Shown here one piece after another: positions 48,159 to 55,687 of a stretch of DNA of 64,000 nucleotides. The notes under the pieces are model-generated. The model ran no database searches and was not told the DNA's origin. It saw only the letters and a list, made by a program, of their open reading frames with translations. Source of the stretch: Curtobacterium sp. MCLR17_032 (GTDB lineage: Bacteria > Actinomycetota > Actinomycetes > Actinomycetales > Microbacteriaceae); NCBI RefSeq assembly GCF_003234795.2, contig NZ_CP126268.1:2914001-2978000 (forward strand), written 5' to 3'. The first letter of the stretch is position 1, and every line of letters starts with the position of its first letter. A program made the translations under genes and the position numbers.

Positions 48159-49255
48159 GCGCCGTCCAGCGCGGCATCCTGCAGCGCAGCACCGTCGACG
48201 CCGTCCGGCTCGTCACCGTGCGGGAGATCCAGGCCCGGCTCCGCAGCAAGGCATTCGTCGTCTCCGCGGTGATCCTGCTCGTGATGGTCGTGGCGGGCAT
48301 CGTCGTCGCGGGCATCGTCGGGAAGTCGACGGCGAACGCGACGACCCCGGTCGCCGTGGTCAGCGGGGTGACCCTGCCGAGCTCGGACGGGCTCGACGTG
48401 ACCAGGACGTCCGACCGTGCCGCGGCCGAGCAGCTCGTCCGTGACGGCGAGGTGGACGCCGCGATCGTCCCCGACGGCGGGCAGCTCGGCTTCCGTGTCG
48501 TCGGCCTCGACAGCGCCCCGACCGACGTCGTCCAGGCGCTCAGTGTCTCGCCCGAGGTCGACCTGCTCGACCCCGGCGCCCTGCCGCCCGGTCTGGTGTC
48601 CCTGGTGGGCATCGCGTTCGGTGTGGTGTTCTTCGCCTCGGCCGTCACCTTCGGCCAGTCGATCGCGCAGAGCGTCGTGGAGGAGAAGTCCACCCGGGTC
48701 GTGGAGATCCTGATGGCGGCGATCCCGGCTCGGGCGCTGCTGGCGGGCAAGGTGATCGGCAACAGCGTGATGGCGCTCGGCCAGATCGTGGCGATCGCGG
48801 TCGCGGCCGCCGTGGCCCTGGCGGTGACCGGGCAGGACAACCTCTTCACGCTGCTCGGCCCGAGCGCGCTCTGGTTCGTCGGGTTCTTCGCGGTCGGGTT
48901 CGTCCTCATCGCGGCGCTGTTCGCGGCCTCGGCAGCACTGGTGTCCCGGCAGGAGGACGTCGGCAGCGTGACCACCCCGGTGATGATGCTGCTGATGATC
49001 CCGTACTTCCTCATCGTGTTCGCCGCGGACGACCCGACGATCCTCGGGATCATGTCGTACGTGCCGTTCAGCGCTCCGATCGGCATGCCGGTCCGGATCT
49101 TCCTGGGAACGGCCGAGTGGTGGGAGCCCCTGCTGTCGCTGGTCGTCGTCGCGGTGTCCGCCCTGGTCGTCGTGCTCCTCGGTGCGCGGGTCTACGAGAA
49201 CGCCCTGCTCCGCACCGGTGGCCGGGTGAAGCTGGCCGAGGCGATCCGCGGCTGA
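48155..49255 (+). CDS. ABC-2 type exporter permease (NatB-like)
   Basis: A 366-residue permease with one helix near residue 30, a long extracellular loop (about 55-145) and five or six helices from about 150 to 355, the topology of NatB/ABC2_membrane_3 proteins. The cytoplasmic motif QSVVEEKSTRVVEILMAAIPARALLAGKV is the typical coupling region of this family. It works with the ATPase that overlaps it. Substrate may be sodium, a peptide or a drug. Confidence 0.9.
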   Translation: MSAVQRGILQRSTVDAVRLVTVREIQARLRSKAFVVSAVILLVMVVAGIVVAGIVGKSTANATTPVAVVSGVTLPSSDGLDVTRTSDRAAAEQLVRDGEVDAAIVPDGGQLGFRVVGLDSAPTDVVQALSVSPEVDLLDPGALPPGLVSLVGIAFGVVFFASAVTFGQSIAQSVVEEKSTRVVEILMAAIPARALLAGKVIGNSVMALGQIVAIAVAAAVALAVTGQDNLFTLLGPSALWFVGFFAVGFVLIAALFAASAALVSRQEDVGSVTTPVMMLLMIPYFLIVFAADDPTILGIMSYVPFSAPIGMPVRIFLGTAEWWEPLLSLVVVAVSALVVVLLGARVYENALLRTGGRVKLAEAIRG

Positions 49256-49359
49256 CCCGCGGTGATGCGGTGACGCGGTGATGGTCCGCAGGACGCGGCC
49301 GGTCGGTCCCCCGTGGCGGTTCCCGGACACCGGGCTGCCACGGGGGACGGCCGTCGTGG

Positions 49360-49365
49360 GATGCT
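49360..49365 (+). promoter_or_regulatory. Possible -10 box of the AraC-family gene
   Basis: GATGCT ends 7 nt before the ATG at 49373, the same arrangement as at 15961 and 39340. Confidence 0.45.
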
Positions 49366-49372
49366 TCGCCTG

Positions 49373-50347
49373 ATGCCGATCGACGACGCGATGCCGGTGC
49401 GTCTCGACGTGACGGGGACGGACCTCGGAGAGGCCGCGAGCTTCATCGCGGACCTCTACGGTGCCGACCTGCACGTCGGGCCCGTCACGACGCCGTTCTC
49501 GTTCCGGTACGTCGCCCTCGGCGACAGCACGATGTCGCTGCACACGTCGCAGTTCGCCGGTCACGTCGACGGGGACCTGCCGCCCTCCGACGCCGTCATC
49601 GTGCAGTGGCTGCAGTCCGGGTCCTCGCGGCTCGACACCGGGGGCACGGTGCTCGAGATGGAGCCCGGCATCCCCGTGCCCCTGCTCCCCGACCGCACGT
49701 TCTCGTTCGCGATGGACGACTACGAACAGCGACTCGTGCACCTGTCCCGCGAGGCCGTCGAACGCGTCGCGGCCGAGCAGGGCGCCGACCTGTCCGCCGG
49801 GCTGCGCTTCGACCACCTGACCGCACCCTCCGAGCAGTCCGTGCGGACCTGGCACAACACGGTGTCCCTCATCTCGCACACCCTCCGCGACGGGACGCCC
49901 GGGCGGCTGCTGCACGCCGAGATGGCCCGGCTGGCGGCGGCGTCCCTGCTGGAGATGTACCCGCAGCAACGTCCGGTGCGTCGGCGCCCCGAGGGCACCG
50001 CGCTGTCGGTGCACGTCCGCGCGGCCGTCGAGTACATCCAGGACCACGCCCGGATGCCGATCACGACGAGTTCCCTGGCGCGCCACCTCGACGTCAGTCT
50101 GCGCGCGCTGCAGGAGGCCTTCCAGCGGGACCTGCAGACCACGCCGAACGCCTACATCCGGCAGGTCCGCCTGGACCGGGTGCGCCAGGAGTTGCTCGTC
50201 TCCGACCCGACCGCCGTCTCGGTGCGCGAGGTCGCCGCGGCCTGGGGGTTCGCTCACCTCGGACGCTTCGCGCAGCAGTACGCGGCGGAGTTCGGCGAGA
50301 GCCCGAGGGACACGCTCGAACGGTCGGACGAGCTTCGGCCTAGATGA
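49373..50347 (+). CDS. AraC-family transcriptional regulator
   Basis: A 324-residue regulator. Residues about 1-190 are a variable sensing domain of the AraC-binding-like (cupin-like) type; residues about 215-320 hold the two-HTH AraC domain (VRAAVEYIQDHARMPITTSSLARHLDVSLRALQEAFQRDLQTTPNAYIRQVRLDRVRQELL ... VREVAAAWGFAHLGRFAQQYAAEFGESPRDTL). The ATG at 49373 follows a GATGCT box by 7 nt. Its last 8 bp overlap the end of the convergent TetR gene. Targets are unknown. Confidence 0.88.
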   Translation: MPIDDAMPVRLDVTGTDLGEAASFIADLYGADLHVGPVTTPFSFRYVALGDSTMSLHTSQFAGHVDGDLPPSDAVIVQWLQSGSSRLDTGGTVLEMEPGIPVPLLPDRTFSFAMDDYEQRLVHLSREAVERVAAEQGADLSAGLRFDHLTAPSEQSVRTWHNTVSLISHTLRDGTPGRLLHAEMARLAAASLLEMYPQQRPVRRRPEGTALSVHVRAAVEYIQDHARMPITTSSLARHLDVSLRALQEAFQRDLQTTPNAYIRQVRLDRVRQELLVSDPTAVSVREVAAAWGFAHLGRFAQQYAAEFGESPRDTLERSDELRPR

Positions 50348-50939
50348 AGTCGGTGTGCGCGCTGGGCGCGTAGGCCGTCATGAGGGTGGCCGCCGCGAGC
50401 CGGGCGGATCGCGCCGGGCGGGTGGTGCGGTGGATCGCCGACTCGACCTTGGCGCCCTCGACCAGCAGGGAGAGCGCATCGGCCACGTGCACGGGCAGAC
50501 CGGCGCGACCGGCGAGGGCGTGCAGGTGCGCCTCGATGCCGCGCAGGTGTTCGTGGGCCAGCGCGGCGACGCGGGACTCGGAGCGGCCGAGTTCGCCGTA
50601 GCCGTTGATGAACGCGCAACCGGTCCAGGTCGGGTCACGGAAGCAGGCCTCGAGGTGCGCGAACACGGTGAGGATCTCGTCCCGGGCATCTGCGGCTCCG
50701 AGGGCGGCCTCGGCGAGCCCGTCGTTCCACTGCGCGTGCCGGTGTTCCAGCACGGCGACGACGACGTCGATCGGGTCCGGGAAGTACGCCCGGACCGTGT
50801 CCGGGTCCGTCCCGGCGAGCGTCGCGACGGTGGCGTGGTCGAGGCCGGCGGCACCCTCGGCGGTGAAGACCCGGTCGGCGGCGTCGACGACGCGAGCACG
50901 GTCCCAGCGGTGCGGTTCGTGCTCGACGTCGACGCCCAC
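50340..50939 (-). CDS. TetR-family regulator of the tiny-gene cassette
   Basis: A 199-residue regulator. The HTH is at about 15-58: WDRARVVDAADRVFTAEGAAGLDHATVATLAGTDPDTVRAYFPDPIDVVVAVLEHR, a somewhat divergent TetR motif with the usual YF after the recognition helix. The C-terminal ligand domain has CFRDPTWTGCAFINGYGELG, similar to the PWTGC/GCL motifs of TetR_C proteins. The GTG start lies one base after the stop of the upstream 54-residue gene, so it is the last gene of a five-gene coupled unit. It probably autoregulates through a palindrome near 51691. Confidence 0.78.
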   Translation of the reverse strand: MGVDVEHEPHRWDRARVVDAADRVFTAEGAAGLDHATVATLAGTDPDTVRAYFPDPIDVVVAVLEHRHAQWNDGLAEAALGAADARDEILTVFAHLEACFRDPTWTGCAFINGYGELGRSESRVAALAHEHLRGIEAHLHALAGRAGLPVHVADALSLLVEGAKVESAIHRTTRPARSARLAAATLMTAYAPSAHTDFI

Positions 50940-50940
50940 G

Positions 50941-51105
50941 TCAGATGGTCGTCGTCGTCGTGGTGCGGAGCGCGGTGCTCCGGGCGGTGCGCTCGGCACA
51001 GAGTGCCTCGAGGCGTCCGAGGCGGGCCCAGACGACCCGGTGGTCGGCACTCAGCCCGGACGAGTCGGCCGTCACGCGGACCGGTCCCTGCTCGAAGGCG
51101 ATCAC
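50941..51105 (-). CDS. Tiny gene D of the TetR cassette, 54 residues
   Basis: Unrecognised. It starts with GTG overlapping the previous stop (GTGA) and encodes VIAFEQGPVRVTADSSGL... ending in a run of six Thr and Ile. The middle, RVVWARLGRLEALCAERTARS, could form an amphipathic helix; there is one Cys. Coupling on both sides (GTGA before, one base to the TetR start after) argues that it is translated. Confidence 0.5.
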   Translation of the reverse strand: MIAFEQGPVRVTADSSGLSADHRVVWARLGRLEALCAERTARSTALRTTTTTTI

Positions 51106-51266
51106 GCGGCGGCCTGGAAGAAGTCGGCGTACGTCGGGTCGGTGCTGACACCGATGCCGAGCCGGCTGATCACGATCCGGTCGATCTCGAGGGGCGAGGA
51201 CATGCCTCGACGGTGCCACTCCAGCGGGTCGGAGCGGAGTTCCTGCATCAGGGTGGAGTCACGCAC
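51102..51266 (-). CDS. Tiny gene C of the TetR cassette, 54 residues
   Basis: Unrecognised. It encodes VRDSTLMQELRSDPLEWHRRG then MSSPLEIDRIVISRLGIGV and a C-terminal TDPTYADFFQAAA. No Cys, no signal peptide. A good ribosome site (AGGAGG) lies 6 nt before its GTG, inside gene B. The alternation of charged and hydrophobic residues suggests a small helical, possibly DNA- or protein-binding, module. It overlaps B by 8 bp and D by 4 bp. Confidence 0.55.
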   Translation of the reverse strand: MRDSTLMQELRSDPLEWHRRGMSSPLEIDRIVISRLGIGVSTDPTYADFFQAAA

Positions 51267-51357
51267 GGAGGGCCTCCTGTTCGCGCATCAGCGCGGTCAT
51301 GTCGATGGGTTCGGTCAGCGCGACGACGTCGTACGGCGCTGGTGCTGCGGTGATCAC
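51259..51357 (-). CDS. Tiny gene B of the TetR cassette, 32 residues
   Basis: Unrecognised peptide beginning VITAAPAPYDVVALTEPID and ending MREQEALRA. Its GTG overlaps the stop of gene A (GTGA) and its stop overlaps the start of gene C. It may be a real peptide or only carry translation from A to C. Confidence 0.4.
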   Translation of the reverse strand: MITAAPAPYDVVALTEPIDMTALMREQEALRA

Positions 51358-51551
51358 GAGGCGACCACCAGGGCGATCACGGCGAGCGTGAACGTGCTGA
51401 CGGCGGCGAGGCCGACGACGAGCGCGCTCGCGGTCAGGATGCGACCGCGGGTGGCTTCTCGGACCTCGGTGAAGGCCTCGGTGCGCGTCGGCCGGCGGAG
51501 GGCCGGGCCGCCGGCGAGGGGTGTCGGGATGGCGGTGATGGTGGCGGGCAT
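51354..51551 (-). CDS. Tiny gene A of the TetR cassette, 65-residue membrane peptide
   Basis: First gene of the cassette. The ATG has a strong ribosome site (AGGAGG, 8 nt upstream). The product has a basic N-terminal half (PALRRPTRTEAFTEVREATRG) and one hydrophobic helix at about 41-64 (TASALVVGLAAVSTFTLAVI), so it should be a single-pass membrane peptide. I do not recognise it. A role as a membrane-active or sensor peptide controlled by the TetR protein is inference. Confidence 0.55.
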   Translation of the reverse strand: MPATITAIPTPLAGGPALRRPTRTEAFTEVREATRGRILTASALVVGLAAVSTFTLAVIALVVAS

Positions 51552-51678
51552 GAGCGTCGCCTCCTCTGCAGGGACCTCGTTCGGTCCCACGTCGACCGGG
51601 GCGACCGCTGCGGCCAGGCCACCGCGGATCGCGGGGGATGTCGGGGCACGCGGGATGGTGTTCGTCCTGGTGTCTCCG

Positions 51679-51727
51679 ACGCTACGACACCCGCTCGAGC
51701 GGACACGAACGCGTCCGCGGATCCGCG
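51679..51727 (-). promoter_or_regulatory. Promoter and two palindromes ahead of the tiny-gene cassette
   Basis: TAGCGT (51679-51684, minus strand) is a likely -10 box. A perfect 12-bp palindrome, CCGCTCGAGCGG, lies at 51691-51702 in the -35/-10 spacer, and a second, CGCGGATCCGCG, at 51716-51727. The leader to gene A is about 120 nt. The first palindrome is a good TetR operator candidate. Confidence 0.45.
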
Positions 51728-51800
51728 AATCGCGACGGATCCGGGCCGCGCATCCCGACCGGGGGCCACGCCCCGACCCGCGCAACGCAGCGCAGCGCGT

Positions 51801-52298
51801 TCAGCGGAGCGCGCGCCGGTACCGCCAGCGGACGACGACCTGCGCGGCACGGAGCACCGGGAACACCAGTGCCCAGGCGCGGGTGGTCGACGGCCGGGTC
51901 AGGGACCGCAGCGTCAACCAGACGGTGTCGCCGTCGCGGCTGACGATGAACGACTCCTCGCCGTCGACGGGGTGGCCGGGCAGGGTCCGGTAGGCGAACC
52001 CGACCCGGTCGTCGGTGCGCACCACCGCGACGACCTCGACCGGCTCCCGCACGACGACCGGGCCGATCCGGAAGCGCACCTCGAGCCGCCGGCCCGGCTG
52101 CACCTCGACGTCGTCCGGCACCGAGAAGCCGCTGCGGGTCTTCACACCCCAGCGGAGCACCGACCGGGAGGCCCGCTCCCACGCCGCCTCGCCGGTCCCG
52201 ACCGCGGACCGCCGCTCGTACCGCCGGTGGGTCGGCGCGGTGGGTCCCCAGACGGCGGACGCGGGATCCGTCCGCGCCGTCCCCTCGTCGCTGCCCAT
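51801..52298 (-). CDS. DUF1990 family protein
   Basis: A 165-residue soluble protein matching DUF1990, an uncharacterised family common in actinobacteria. Typical parts are ERASRSVLRWGVKTRSGF near residue 45, PVEVVAVVRTDDRVGFAYRTLPGHPVDGEESFIV near 85, and RPSTTRAWALVFPVLRAAQVVVRWRYRRAL at the end. The ATG at 52298 is preferred over 52307 because CAGGAT lies 7 nt before it. Function unknown. Confidence 0.82.
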   Translation of the reverse strand: MGSDEGTARTDPASAVWGPTAPTHRRYERRSAVGTGEAAWERASRSVLRWGVKTRSGFSVPDDVEVQPGRRLEVRFRIGPVVVREPVEVVAVVRTDDRVGFAYRTLPGHPVDGEESFIVSRDGDTVWLTLRSLTRPSTTRAWALVFPVLRAAQVVVRWRYRRALR

Positions 52299-52305
52299 GC
52301 CGGCC

Positions 52306-52311
52306 ATCCTG
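52306..52311 (-). promoter_or_regulatory. Possible -10 box of the DUF1990 gene
   Basis: CAGGAT on the minus strand ends 7 nt before the ATG at 52298. Confidence 0.4.
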
Positions 52312-52387
52312 CCCGAGTGCCGTGCCCGAGGACGCGGGACGACCCTCCCGGCGGGTCGCCGACCACCCCGTCATCAGGGCCCGCGCG

Positions 52388-52393
52388 TACCGT
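52388..52393 (+). promoter_or_regulatory. -10 box, leaderless promoter of the NAD(P)-binding gene
   Basis: TACCGT ends 7 nt before the ATG at 52401. Confidence 0.6.
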
Positions 52394-52400
52394 CCACGTC

Positions 52401-53042
52401 ATGAGCAACGCCATCATCCTCGGCGGCCACGGCCGCGTCGCCCTCCTCACCGCGCAGCTCCTGACGGGCCGCGGCGACACCGTCTCGTCGGTCATCCGGA
52501 AGGCCGAGCAGCAGGACGACGTCCGCGCCACCGGTGCGGAGCCCGTCGTCGCCGACATCGAGCAGCTCGACATCGCCGGCCTCACCGACCTGGTCCGCGG
52601 CCACGACGCGATCGTCTGGGCAGCCGGCGCCGGCGGGGGTTCCGCCGAGCGCACCTGGGCCGTCGACCGGGACGCCGCGATCCGCTCGATGCACGCCGCC
52701 CTCGAGGCCGAGGTCCAGCGCTTCGTCCTCGTCTCCTGGTCGGACGCGGGCCTCGGCCACGGTGTCCCCGAGGACGACGACTTCTTCGCCTACGCCGAGG
52801 CGAAGACCGTCGCCGACGCGGTCCTCCGCGACTCGGCGCTCGACTGGACGATCGTCGCCCCGAGCACCCTGACCGACGACGACGCGACCGGCTCCGTCGA
52901 GACCGCCGACCCGTCCTCGAGCATCGCCCGCGCGGACGTCGCCGCGCTGGTCGCCGCGTCCCTGCACGACGACGCGTCGGTCGGCAAGACCTTCCGCGTC
53001 AACACCGGCGACGTCGCGATCGAGCAGTTCGTCCGCGACTGA
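52401..53042 (+). CDS. NAD(P)H-binding (atypical SDR) protein
   Basis: A 213-residue protein of the NAD(P)H-binding NmrA/YhfK-like SDR group. The nucleotide motif is AIILGGHGRVALLTAQLLTGRGDTV at residues 4-28, a GxGxxA-like variant of GxxGxxG; DAIVWAAGAGGGSAERTW near 75 and FAYAEAKTVADAVLRDSALDWTIVAPSTLTD near 135 are typical of the family, with the YxxxK pair. Related proteins are flavin or quinone reductases, or redox sensors. The start is fixed by TACCGT 7 nt upstream. A palindromic repeat follows. Confidence 0.85.
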   Translation: MSNAIILGGHGRVALLTAQLLTGRGDTVSSVIRKAEQQDDVRATGAEPVVADIEQLDIAGLTDLVRGHDAIVWAAGAGGGSAERTWAVDRDAAIRSMHAALEAEVQRFVLVSWSDAGLGHGVPEDDDFFAYAEAKTVADAVLRDSALDWTIVAPSTLTDDDATGSVETADPSSSIARADVAALVAASLHDDASVGKTFRVNTGDVAIEQFVRD

Positions 53043-53046
53043 GCCC

Positions 53047-53132
53047 CAGCGTCTCCGTTCCTTGCGAGACGCCTCCGACCTGCCGAGACGCCGCCGGATC
53101 CGGCGGCGTCTCGCGCATTCGGCGGCGTCTCA
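53047..53132. repeat. 19-bp-period GAGACGCC repeat, copy between convergent genes
   Basis: GAGACG motifs at 53066 and 53085 are exactly 19 bp apart; GCGTCTC upstream pairs with GAGACGC at 53066. The second unit is the left arm of a perfect 28-bp palindrome (53085-53112; arms GAGACGCCGCCGGA and complement). A further CGGCGGCGTCTC follows at about 53120. Confidence 0.7.
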
Positions 53133-53148
53133 CGGAGACGGGCCCGCC

Positions 53149-53706
53149 TCAGGGCAGCAGCGCCGTGGCCACCGCCCGCGCGGTCGCGGTGTCGTCGGCG
53201 TCGCCCCGGAGGCGCATCGCCAGCGCCCCGGAGACCACGAGGAGCAACCGGTCCGCCAAGCCGTCCGCCTCCCCCACCCCGACCAGGGGCACCGTGGCGT
53301 CGTGCAGCCGTGACCGCAGCGTGGCCGTCTCGTGGTGCAGCACCACGGTGATCTCGTCCGGAGCGTCGGCGTACTCCGACGCCGTCCCGAGGAACGCGCA
53401 CCACCGCGACCCGGAGGGCGTCGAGCGGAAGGCGTCGAGCGCGTCGAAGACCGCGAGCGCCCGGCCACGGTCATCGGACGCGCGGGCGAGCGCCTCGTCC
53501 CACACCCGCAACCACTCGTCGTGCCGTCGCTCGAGGGCGGCGGCGACCAGCGCCTCCTTGCTGGCGTACCCGCGGTAGAGCGTGGCGGCGGAGACCCCGG
53601 CACGTTCGAGGACGGCGTCGATCGGGGTCGCGGCGATGCCCCGTGTGAAGAACAGCTCCTCCGCGGCGTCGAGGAGCTTCCGCTCGGTTCCTGGACGCAT
53701 CGTCAT
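53149..53706 (-). CDS. TetR-family repressor
   Basis: A 185-residue regulator. The HTH (about 8-52) reads LLDAAEELFFTRGIAATPIDAVLERAGVSAATLYRGYASKEALVAAALERR. The ATG at 53706 follows a TAGGGT box by 6 nt. It is divergent from an MFS transporter, with a perfect palindrome, AAACGTACGTTT, in the gap; repression of the transporter and itself is the natural reading. The ligand is probably a substrate of the transporter. Confidence 0.9.
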   Translation of the reverse strand: MTMRPGTERKLLDAAEELFFTRGIAATPIDAVLERAGVSAATLYRGYASKEALVAAALERRHDEWLRVWDEALARASDDRGRALAVFDALDAFRSTPSGSRWCAFLGTASEYADAPDEITVVLHHETATLRSRLHDATVPLVGVGEADGLADRLLLVVSGALAMRLRGDADDTATARAVATALLP

Positions 53707-53765: not shown

Positions 53766-55058
53766 GTGCTCATCGGCAGCGGCACGGCCCTCGTCGCGGC
53801 GACCTACGGTCTCGTCCGGCTGGCCTACGGGCTGTTCCTGCCCGACGTGCAGGACTCGATCGGCCTCGGCGACGGACCCGCGGGCTGGATCGCCTCGGGG
53901 TCCTCGGTCGTCTACTGCATCGGCGCGCTGGTCGGCTTCGTGCTGGCTCCGGCGCGCCCACGTACCGCGGTCGTCCTCGCTGCGCTGACGGCCGGACTCG
54001 GAGTCGCCGGGATGGCAGCGAGCACCACCCCACTCGTGTTCGGCACCGCCGCGGTCGTCAGCTCGGCGGGTGCCGGACTGGCGTCGCCCGCACTCGTCCG
54101 GCTCGTGCAGCGGGACCTGTCGGCCGAGCGGGTGAACGGGGCGCAGGCGGTGGTCAACTCCGGCACCGGGCCCGGCCTCGTCGCCGCGGGCGTCCTCGCC
54201 CTGGTGCTGCTGCCGGACTGGCGGGTGGCCTGGGCGGTGGCCGCCGTCGTCACGGTCACCGCCGGGGCCGCCGTCCTGCTCGCCGACCGAGCCGCGGCAC
54301 CGGTGCCGACGGGGACCGGGCCCACGACGGGGACGGGGAGGGCAACGGACACGGAGCGCCGCCCGAGCCCCGTCCCACCCCGGGCGTGGTTCGCCGCCCA
54401 CCGCGGCCCGGTCCTGGTCGCACTGCTCCTCGGTGCCGGCTCGGCCGCGGTCTGGACCTACGGCCGCACCCTGCTCGTCGACGCCGGCGCCCCGACGGTC
54501 CTGTCGGTGGTGGCGTGGATCGCCCTGGGCACCGGAGGCGCGACTGTCGGCCTCACCTCGCGGTGGCTCGGACGCCTGCCGGCCCACACGGCGTGGGCCC
54601 GCACGGCGGCGGCGGTCGCCCTCGCCACCCTCGGCCTCGGTCTGGCCGCGCAGCTGCACGGCATCACACTGGCCGCGGTCGCCCTGGTCAGCTGTGCGCT
54701 GTTCGGCTGGGGCTACACCGCGGCGACGGGCGCCCTGATCTCGTGGACGACCGAACTCGACCGGGACCGCGCGGCATCGGGTACCTCGGTGCTCTTCGTG
54801 GTCCTCGTCCTCGGGCAGGCGCTCGGTGCGGCCGTAGCGGGCAGCGCGCTCCCCGCCGTCGGCGCGGGCCCGGTGTTCGTCGTCGCAGCGGTGGTCGTCG
54901 CACTCGGGGTGGTCCCGGCGCTCGCGGTGGTCCCGGCGCTCAGGGGGCTCCCGGCACTCAGAAGTCCTCGCCGATGTCCGGCACGTCGGTCATCTCCGCG
55001 TTCCACGCCGGCCGAGCCGGCTGGAGACGCAGCGTCTCCGCCTCGAGGTACTCGATGA
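53766..55058 (+). CDS. MFS transporter with an unusual C-terminal tail
   Basis: A 430-residue major facilitator with about twelve helices (from GTALVAATYGLVRLAYGLFLPDV to VFVVAAVVVALGVVPALAVV). The GTG at 53766 is the only reasonable start, but the frame is open further upstream, so it is uncertain. After about residue 395 the product becomes an Arg/Pro/Ser-rich tail whose DNA overlaps the opposite-strand gene at 54958-55290 by 101 bp. The tail looks like read-through of a lost stop codon. Probably a drug exporter controlled by the divergent TetR. Confidence 0.8.
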   Translation: MLIGSGTALVAATYGLVRLAYGLFLPDVQDSIGLGDGPAGWIASGSSVVYCIGALVGFVLAPARPRTAVVLAALTAGLGVAGMAASTTPLVFGTAAVVSSAGAGLASPALVRLVQRDLSAERVNGAQAVVNSGTGPGLVAAGVLALVLLPDWRVAWAVAAVVTVTAGAAVLLADRAAAPVPTGTGPTTGTGRATDTERRPSPVPPRAWFAAHRGPVLVALLLGAGSAAVWTYGRTLLVDAGAPTVLSVVAWIALGTGGATVGLTSRWLGRLPAHTAWARTAAAVALATLGLGLAAQLHGITLAAVALVSCALFGWGYTAATGALISWTTELDRDRAASGTSVLFVVLVLGQALGAAVAGSALPAVGAGPVFVVAAVVVALGVVPALAVVPALRGLPALRSPRRCPARRSSPRSTPAEPAGDAASPPRGTR

Positions 55059-55290
55059 CCTGCTGGTCGAACGGCTCGTCGGCACTGTCCGGCACCGGCG
55101 TGGAGAAGATCTCGCTCGCCGGCCCGATGAGCAGGTGCGCGTAGACCGTGCCGCCGCCCTCGGTGAGCACCGGGATCTGCACGACGTCGGACGTCCCCGC
55201 CACAGCCAGGGCACGGCAGTAACGGAGGAGGGCCTTGCAGGTGCGGTCCCCGGTGAGGATGTGACTGTCCACGTAGTGGATACGGCGCAT
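54958..55290 (-). CDS. Conserved-looking hypothetical protein, 110 residues
   Basis: I do not recognise this soluble acidic protein. It begins RRIHYVDSHILTGDRTCKALLRYCRALAVAG, has TVYAHLLIGPASEIFSTPV in the middle and ends EMTDVPDIGEDF. It is divergent from the DUF7882 gene across 82 bp, and shares the small-protein style of that cluster (a domain of about 100 residues with VTLEGGG-like and LLIGPAS segments, compare LLISPAT in the gene at 55684). The two may be related or form part of one system. Confidence 0.65.
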   Translation of the reverse strand: MRRIHYVDSHILTGDRTCKALLRYCRALAVAGTSDVVQIPVLTEGGGTVYAHLLIGPASEIFSTPVPDSADEPFDQQVIEYLEAETLRLQPARPAWNAEMTDVPDIGEDF

Positions 55291-55372: not shown

Positions 55373-55687
55373 ATGGGCAAACTCGTCTACGACTCCACGT
55401 TCACCGCCGAGTTCGACGACCGCCTGCTGACGCACCTGCAGATCGTCATCGGGATGAAGCTCCGGCGTGGTGAGTCCTTCATGTTCTCGTGGAAGGACGA
55501 CGTCGAGCTCGGGGACGGCCGGACCGCGATCTGGCTCGACCGCTCGATGCCCCTGGTCTTCCGGTACTCCGGCAGCCGCATCCCCGCCGTGAACCGTGCC
55601 TGGGTCGAAGCGCTCGGCCTGACCGCCGGGTCGTCCGCGGGCCTCCGCATCGTGCCGGAACCGACCGACTCCGGAGACACCCTGTGA
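55373..55687 (+). CDS. DUF7882 family protein
   Basis: A 104-residue protein of a family typical of Microbacteriaceae: MGKLVYDSTFTAEFDDRLL, HLQIVIGMKLRRGESFMFSWKDD, AIWLDRSMPLVFRYSGSRIP and a C-terminal NRAWVEALGLTAGSS. Relatives are sometimes mislabelled as ATP-dependent DNA ligase, but no ligase motif (KxDG) is present. The name DUF7882 is from memory. Function unknown; the small beta-rich domain could bind a ligand. The next gene starts on its stop (GTGA). Confidence 0.75.
   Translation: MGKLVYDSTFTAEFDDRLLTHLQIVIGMKLRRGESFMFSWKDDVELGDGRTAIWLDRSMPLVFRYSGSRIPAVNRAWVEALGLTAGSSAGLRIVPEPTDSGDTL

What the first reader, a model, noticed from the sequence alone, without database searches (positions are those of the whole stretch)
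50340..51727. Five-gene cassette of four tiny, overlapping genes plus a TetR regulator
Four frames of 65, 32, 54 and 54 codons follow one another on the minus strand with GTGA or 8-bp overlaps, and the TetR gene begins one base after the last stop. Genes A and C have AGGAGG ribosome sites. Such tight coupling argues that all are translated. Gene A is a one-helix membrane peptide; B-D match nothing I know. A membrane peptide with small soluble partners under TetR control could be a new signalling, immunity or peptide system.
Basis: partly seen in the sequence, partly recalled or inferred. Interest (0 to 1): 0.75.

Follow-up and report, generated by a model that had tools for sequence, protein, structure and literature searches.

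The report
Regulator-linked operon of four tiny proteins
In a Curtobacterium bacterium, four tiny genes overlapping end to end are very probably real protein genes that travel with two switch proteins (TetR and AraC types), and they belong to undescribed families of tiny proteins found in several copies per genome.

Summary
Genes A (65 aa), B (32), C (54), D (54) and a TetR-type gene follow one another on the minus strand with 4-, 8- and 4-nt overlaps and a 1-nt gap. All five are intact with the same junctions in the window and five relatives (6 of 6 examined), although A and D vary in length. C is under clear purifying selection (pN/pS 0.12; TetR 0.21); B alone is inconclusive, but its motif recurs in two other genera.

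The convergent AraC gene belongs to the unit: 28 of 29 TetR-type loci have it in the held DNA, up to 4 kb away, and a Curtobacterium plasmid carries AraC-A-B-C-TetR. And the small proteins are multicopy families: C matches in 66 of 66 Curtobacterium genomes, 2-9 each; A reaches other Microbacteriaceae. No Pfam, NCBIfam, PHROGs or PADLOC family covers A-D (D has one sub-threshold NCBIfam match).

Best reading: a TetR/AraC-switched microprotein operon, probably an assembly at the inner membrane face. Conservation and linkage are shown; function is inferred. Immunity or peptide signalling is unsupported.

The parts
51354..51551 (-). Gene A: 65-aa small membrane protein, Thr/Pro-rich N terminus, F(S/T)EVRxAxRxR juxtamembrane motif, one C-terminal hydrophobic helix
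   Evidence: family in 57 of 66 Curtobacterium genomes, 32 of 299 family genomes in 11 of 85 genera, own genus included
51259..51357 (-). Gene B: 32-aa peptide with LTEPIDMTAL motif; starts in A's stop (GTGA)
   Evidence: pN/pS alone inconclusive
51102..51266 (-). Gene C: 54-aa soluble protein, P-x-E-W-x-R-R-G...P...YADFF; predicted helical; overlaps B by 8 nt
50941..51105 (-). Gene D: 54-aa protein with HRxVWxRLxRL motif; starts in C's stop (GTGA)
50340..50939 (-). TetR-type regulator, 199 aa, last gene of the operon
   Evidence: Pfam scores below the gathering cut-off; a 47.6%-identical homologue is annotated TetR family
49373..50347 (+). AraC-type regulator (open frame from 49313; start at 49373 chosen by eye from the conserved N terminus in relatives), converging on and overlapping the TetR gene by 8 nt
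   Evidence: Pfam HTH_18 and AraC_binding_2 above cut-off; linked in 28 of 29 TetR-type loci
51720..51734 (-). Candidate operator CGCGATTCGCGGATC (11-bp inverted repeat CGCGA-T-TCGCG) upstream of A
   Evidence: present upstream of A in 8 of 9 loci aligned, window included (7 exact, L004 differs in the central base, L067 degenerate); only site with at most 1 mismatch in this genome
51679..51684 (-). TAGCGT, possible -10 element (conserved columns only; the consensus promoter scan found none)
51560..51565 (-). AGGAGG ribosome-binding site of gene A

Best explanation
A locally switched microprotein operon. TetR, encoded at the end of the same operon, probably binds the private inverted repeat upstream of A and represses its own operon until it meets a ligand; the convergent AraC-type protein is a second, probably activating, input. 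The outputs are the microproteins themselves. A is anchored in the cytoplasmic membrane with its N-terminal FSEVR segment inside the cell; B, C and D are soluble partners made in fixed proportion by stop-start coupling, and probably assemble on A or on a larger membrane protein, C through its helices and YADFF tail. Shown: the genes, their conservation, overlaps, linkage to TetR and AraC, and a conserved inverted repeat found once in the genome. Inferred: repression by TetR, activation by AraC, membrane topology, assembly, and the unknown larger target.
For: Same junctions in 6 of 6 close loci; 8-nt B/C overlap in 15 of 15 TetR-type loci with B and on a plasmid. AraC with TetR in 28 of 29 loci in several layouts: convergent downstream, divergent upstream, co-directional downstream. 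TetR-AraC distance correlation 0.80, TetR-C 0.53, AraC-C 0.51, each with 0 of 2000 permutations as high (shared descent of the strains also contributes). The plasmid locus keeps AraC-A-B-C-TetR. In this genome the inverted-repeat 15-mer, at up to 1 mismatch, is only upstream of A. In other genera A, B and YADF(F) peptides lie beside genes that read by eye as MarR, TetR or AraC types: peptides as outputs of interchangeable regulators explains this best. C is predicted helical (pLDDT 82.8).
Against: No direct evidence of binding, expression or topology. By motif, A is missing from 7 of 29, B from 14 of 29 and D from 21 of 29 TetR-type loci, and in L117 A is not overlapped with B, so a fixed four-part complex is not required. 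16 of 62 C loci, classed by hand, are solo genes with none of the four regulators searched for in the held DNA, so C also works without A or TetR. More distant homologues of this TetR occur without the cassette (for example L022-L030). The inverted repeat is not seen by eye in an alignment of seven other TetR-type loci. pTM of C is only 0.47. No constant larger target gene was noticed among neighbours read by eye.
Confidence: 0.45

Rival explanations
1. The microproteins are co-regulators: B, C and/or D bind TetR or AraC and A tethers or releases the regulator at the membrane, in the way small DUF397 proteins act beside XRE regulators in Streptomyces.
For: Regulators are the only larger genes I found constantly linked; similar peptides lie beside MarR-, AraC- or TetR-type genes in other genera (by eye). 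Precedent: bldB paralogues beside whiJ paralogues (PMC10294661, abstract) and XRE-DUF397 pairs (PMC10364602, abstract).
Against: Three unrelated regulator families would have to be bound; 16 of 62 C loci are solo without the regulators searched for (classed by hand); C follows TetR and AraC divergence less closely (0.53, 0.51) than these follow each other (0.80), though C is short and its distances noisy.
Confidence: 0.27
2. A is an accessory subunit of a nearby transporter that TetR and AraC control, in the manner of small efflux-pump subunits.
For: TetR is distantly like the efflux regulators EbrA and TtgR (E 1e-4 and 8e-4); genes that read by eye as MFS, TauE-like or aquaporin-like lie near some loci, an MFS gene is annotated on the plasmid, and ABC-transporter-like genes precede AraC in the window group (by eye).
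Against: The neighbouring transporter differs between loci and many loci show none by eye.
Confidence: 0.1
3. Toxin-antitoxin or immunity cassette, A the membrane toxin and C the antitoxin.
For: A small hydrophobic protein coupled to small soluble proteins, multicopy; one copy on a plasmid.
Against: No A found by motif at 36 of 62 C loci, and A without C (L174); C matches in 66 of 66 genomes of the genus rather than patchily; no PADLOC or PHROG family, no relative of C in IMG/VR, no phage-record match of one C homologue.
Confidence: 0.06
4. The small frames act as a leader whose translation sets the TetR level, and the peptides themselves do little.
For: Very tight junctions and a 1-nt gap to TetR; unusually low synonymous change in B.
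Against: Protein motifs conserved across paralogues and genera; C copies without an adjacent TetR of this kind (33 of 62); pN/pS of C 0.12.
Confidence: 0.05
5. Exported peptide or pheromone system.
For: Small size and linked regulators.
Against: A's hydrophobic helix is at the C-terminal end, and no exporter or protease gene was noticed as constantly linked (by eye).
Confidence: 0.04

Closest known systems
XRE-DUF397 pairs and whiJ-bldB loci of Streptomyces (PMC10364602, PMC10294661; abstracts read)
   Same: Multicopy loci in one actinobacterial genus that pair small proteins with transcription factors; for fourteen XRE-DUF397 pairs none behaved as a type II toxin-antitoxin system (abstract).
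   Different: Regulators here are TetR, AraC or MarR types, not XRE; none of A-D matches DUF397 or any Pfam family; one partner is a membrane peptide and up to four small genes are coupled.
Small membrane subunits or modulators such as AcrZ, MgrB, KdpF, CydX (recalled; CydX seen in a search listing)
   Same: Tens of residues, one membrane helix.
   Different: No Pfam or NCBIfam match for A; here soluble microproteins and a regulator are coupled downstream.
TetR-type efflux regulators EbrA and TtgR
   Same: Distant sequence relatives of the window's TetR.
   Different: Here the operon holds microproteins, not a pump, and has an AraC partner.
Streptomyces conservons (recalled, not looked up)
   Same: Multicopy four-gene operons thought to act at the membrane.
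   Different: Conservon proteins are larger and of known kinds (recalled).

Membership tests
TetR/AcrR regulators | TetR_N DNA-binding domain | tested here: inconclusive
   Pfam TetR_N 13.4 bits against a cut-off of 24; weak NCBIfam matches to TetR-type models, all below cut-off; PDB TetR chains at E 7e-5 to 8e-4; homologue annotated TetR
TetR/AcrR regulators | about 200 aa with a ligand-binding C-terminal half | tested here: inconclusive
   199 aa; TetR_C_13 15.5 bits against 27
AraC/XylS regulators | C-terminal HTH_18 and an N-terminal AraC-binding domain | tested here: met
   HTH_18 75.2 bits (cut-off 33.6), AraC_binding_2 36.8 (27)
XRE-DUF397 / BldB modules | DUF397 small protein beside an XRE regulator | tested here: not met
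   no Pfam family for A-D at E up to 5; the constantly linked regulators are TetR and AraC types
Toxin-antitoxin systems | the two genes kept as a pair | tested here: not met
   no A by motif at 36 of 62 C loci; A without C at L174
Toxin-antitoxin systems | one product toxic without the other | not testable with these tools
   needs expression
Anti-phage defence systems | match to a known defence model | tested here: not met
   0 PADLOC families for A-D, TetR and AraC; candidate systems outside that library not excluded
Small membrane protein modulators | one membrane helix | tested here: met
   22 A homologues: best 19-residue mean hydropathy 1.9-2.7
Small membrane protein modulators | binds a larger membrane protein | not testable with these tools
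   needs pull-down or crosslinking

The most novel reading that the evidence does not exclude
Microbacteriaceae carry a mix-and-match set of microproteins, each little more than one or two short conserved motifs (FSEVR plus membrane helix; TQP[IL]D[ML]; HxxxWxRLxRL; YADFF; LSHExLV; YPKRRR), that are combined in different coupled operons under AraC-, TetR- or MarR-type switches and dock on a shared cellular machine, giving each switch its own effect on that machine.
Probability: 0.25. Interest if true: 0.85.

Novelty: new variant of a known kind. Interest (0 to 1): 0.6.

Why it matters
Genes this short are easily left out of annotation: on plasmid pCspYC1 the 30-aa B frame has no listed gene although it lies between two listed ones (that gene table is incomplete by its own description). 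A conserved, multicopy, regulator-linked family with constant overlaps gives comparative support that 30-60-aa proteins are real, and offers a compact system (two regulators, four microproteins, one candidate operator) in which to ask what bacterial microproteins do. C matches in all 66 Curtobacterium genomes searched, so its partner is probably part of that genus's core biology (inference).

Tried and rejected
Not coding or chance overlap: rejected. Mobile-element or phage cargo: no relative of C in IMG/VR; no match of one C homologue (L066) in the phage records; plasmids hold C in 3 records, all Curtobacterium. Known family: none for A-D in Pfam, PHROGs or PADLOC; in NCBIfam only D's weak match to an SDR oxidoreductase model (E 0.0012, 18.2 bits against a cut-off of 253), which I take as chance. 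Structured RNA in 48500-53500: none in Rfam at gathering scores. Sigma-70-like promoter or terminator in 50200-51900: none by consensus. Fold of C: no PDB match by Foldseek; PDB sequence matches only at E 0.31 or worse. C outside the genus: 7 of 299 family genomes match and all 7 are Curtobacterium, and 1 of 297 order genomes, G000 itself; only the best-looking candidates per genome were scored there. Weak A hits in two genomes of other families lie in long frames and I take them as chance, likewise the weakest family hits (E above 1e-5; L168 reads as a 181-aa frame). Rows: of 62 C loci, five (L080, L104, L108, L113, L122) fit no class and several may be spurious; they stay in the denominators. 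Two YADF-pattern hits (L189, L193) fall in a protein of about 200 aa and are not C-like; 14 of the 23 hit loci were read, and for L188 the script showed the neighbouring L183 match. Literature: (listings only) returned no paper whose listing concerns this system. The loci are related by descent, so co-occurrence and correlation counts are not independent events.

Full report
What is there. On the minus strand, genes A (51551-51354, 65 aa), B (51357-51259, 32 aa), C (51266-51102, 54 aa), D (51105-50941, 54 aa) and a TetR-type gene (50939-50340, 199 aa) follow with overlaps of 4, 8 and 4 nt and a 1-nt gap. The window lies in a 3.71-Mb single-contig genome. All 62 named loci encoding relatives of C are titled Curtobacterium or, in a few cases, Microbacteriaceae bacterium, so I take the host to be Curtobacterium.

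Are they genes? Codon-usage scores for A-D are positive in the stated frame and negative in the other five. In the window and five relatives (TetR 72-90% identical) all five frames are intact and the junctions are the same, while length changes in A (65-81 aa) and D (52-59 aa) keep the frame. Pooled pN/pS for the four closest is A 0.47, B 0.95, C 0.12, D 0.39, TetR 0.21, and for all six 0.59, 0.40, 0.34, 0.51, 0.35; 9 of 10 shifted-frame controls give 1 or more, B frame +1 giving 0.60. B is too short and too little changed for this test, but its motif T(Q/E)P(I/L/F)D recurs at 9 loci of two other unnamed genera, 8 of them with a 4-nt A/B overlap.

They are families. C has a consensus LR..P.EW.RRG(L/M)..P..(I/L)...V..R...(D/E)P(S/T)YADFF, with ten columns invariant in 22 diverse copies. 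It matches in 66 of 66 Curtobacterium genomes, 2-9 matches each, 6 in this one; in 7 of 299 genomes of the family sample, all 7 Curtobacterium; and in 1 of 297 of the order sample, G000 itself. A matches in 57 of 66 Curtobacterium genomes and 32 of 299 family genomes from 11 of 85 genera, own genus included; hits at E 1e-6 or better fall in four further, unnamed genera. Frigoribacterium proteins match A at E 2e-6 to 4e-4 and may or may not be one of these. The 62 named C loci sort by hand into: TetR-type 29; MarR plus A plus C 4; AraC-C-AraC 5; MarR directly after C 1; AraC overlapping C 1; B plus C 1; solo C 16; unclassified 5. Of the 16 solo loci, 15 lie behind a gene of about 1200 aa (subtilase in the one tested, L096) and 9 show a purA-like gene (by eye) starting within about 1 kb downstream.

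The unit is larger than reported. Of 29 TetR-type loci, 28 have an AraC gene of the window's kind (E below 1e-60) in the held DNA (up to 4 kb each side), while 1 of 33 C loci without the TetR has one at that threshold; five more of those 33 have AraC-type genes at E 1e-49 to 1e-35 next to C. The missing one, L089, may have it further away. Each of 8 genomes searched has 11-13 AraC-like matches at E below 1e-15, so chance proximity is unlikely, though the loci share descent. Layouts differ: AraC convergent downstream (window type), divergent upstream, co-directional downstream. TetR and AraC distances correlate at 0.80 over 28 loci, TetR and C at 0.53, AraC and C at 0.51, none reached in 2000 permutations. 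Plasmid pCspYC1 of Curtobacterium sp. YC1 carries AraC divergent from A-B-C-TetR with the same 4- and 8-nt overlaps; D is absent there (72 nt between C and TetR) and B has no listed gene. More distant homologues of this TetR, in Curtobacterium and in another family, stand without such genes (L022-L030).

Control region. Upstream of A a CGCGATTCGCGGATC block containing an 11-bp inverted repeat is present in 8 of 9 loci aligned, window included (7 exact, L004 with another central base; L067 degenerate), followed by TAGCGT in most and an AGGAGG-type site. The inverted repeat occurs once in the 64-kb window, and the 15-mer with up to one mismatch once in this genome, reversed control 0; in three relatives it is exact upstream of the cassette, with one extra 1-mismatch site in two of them. 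This suggests a private operator, but which protein binds it is unknown, and an alignment of seven TetR-type loci of another group does not show it by eye.

Other genera. Near A homologues in other genera are B-like peptides, small proteins ending in (D/E)P(S/T)YADF and some carrying YPKRRR or LSHExLV-like segments, and genes that read by eye as MarR, TetR or AraC types. Pfam confirmed MarR or AraC-type HTH domains only for the three Curtobacterium representatives tested (L077, L173, L170). A DNA pattern for [DE]P[ST]YxDF gave 23 hits in 9 of 13 genomes, reversed control 0; two of the hits are in a larger unrelated protein.

How it probably works. The constant linkage to regulators, the coupled order with TetR last, and a candidate operator found once in the genome fit a negatively autoregulated local switch with AraC as a second input. 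As the linked regulators belong to different families while the peptides recur, the peptides are more likely the outputs than cofactors of one regulator fold. A's conserved FSEVR segment beside one hydrophobic helix suggests a membrane anchor with a specific cytoplasmic contact; C is predicted all-helical with YADFF in its last helix (pLDDT 82.8, pTM 0.47). All steps after 'conserved, coupled and linked' are inference.

Novelty. No family model covers A-D (one sub-threshold match of D), no PDB fold match was found for C, and the literature searches made (listings) showed no description in the open-access library held. The nearest working analogue is the Streptomyces XRE-DUF397 and bldB-whiJ loci (abstracts), of which this is not a member.

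Noticed in passing
L092, L095-L098, L100-L103, L105-L107, L109-L111, L119 (16 of 62 C loci); L169 in this genome: Solo C genes: 15 of 16 lie behind a gene of about 1200 aa (Pfam Peptidase_S8 in the one tested), and 9 of 16 show a purA-like gene (by eye) close downstream; L169 has both.
   Followed up: partly
L174; L146: An A homologue coupled to a D-like gene (L174), or to an 88-aa and a D-like gene (L146), so A and D occur together without C or TetR.
   Followed up: partly
L146 1644-1910 (reverse-complement coordinates); L112, L148, L152, L158: A further small family of about 70-90 aa (W..AD..FW.A...G.F.GTID..G.H...F.RY.GDF) seen by eye next to A homologues; no Pfam or NCBIfam match for the L146 member.
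   Followed up: partly
L156, L160, L165, L167: 29-aa peptides ending in DH..YFDT..DDDLD follow A-B-(LSHExLV-like) genes in another genus, upstream of a gene that looks MarR-like by eye.
   Followed up: no
window 51259-51357: Synonymous change in B is unusually low among the four closest loci (pS 0.065 against 0.248 for TetR), perhaps an RNA-level or overlap constraint, or small numbers.
   Followed up: no
window 55373-55687 and 54961-55290: A DUF7882 protein; the divergent neighbouring frame has no Pfam match and has look-alikes by eye near C genes in L099 and L170.
   Followed up: partly
window 51801-52307: DUF1990 gene upstream of the cassette on the same strand, ending 249 nt before A.
   Followed up: no
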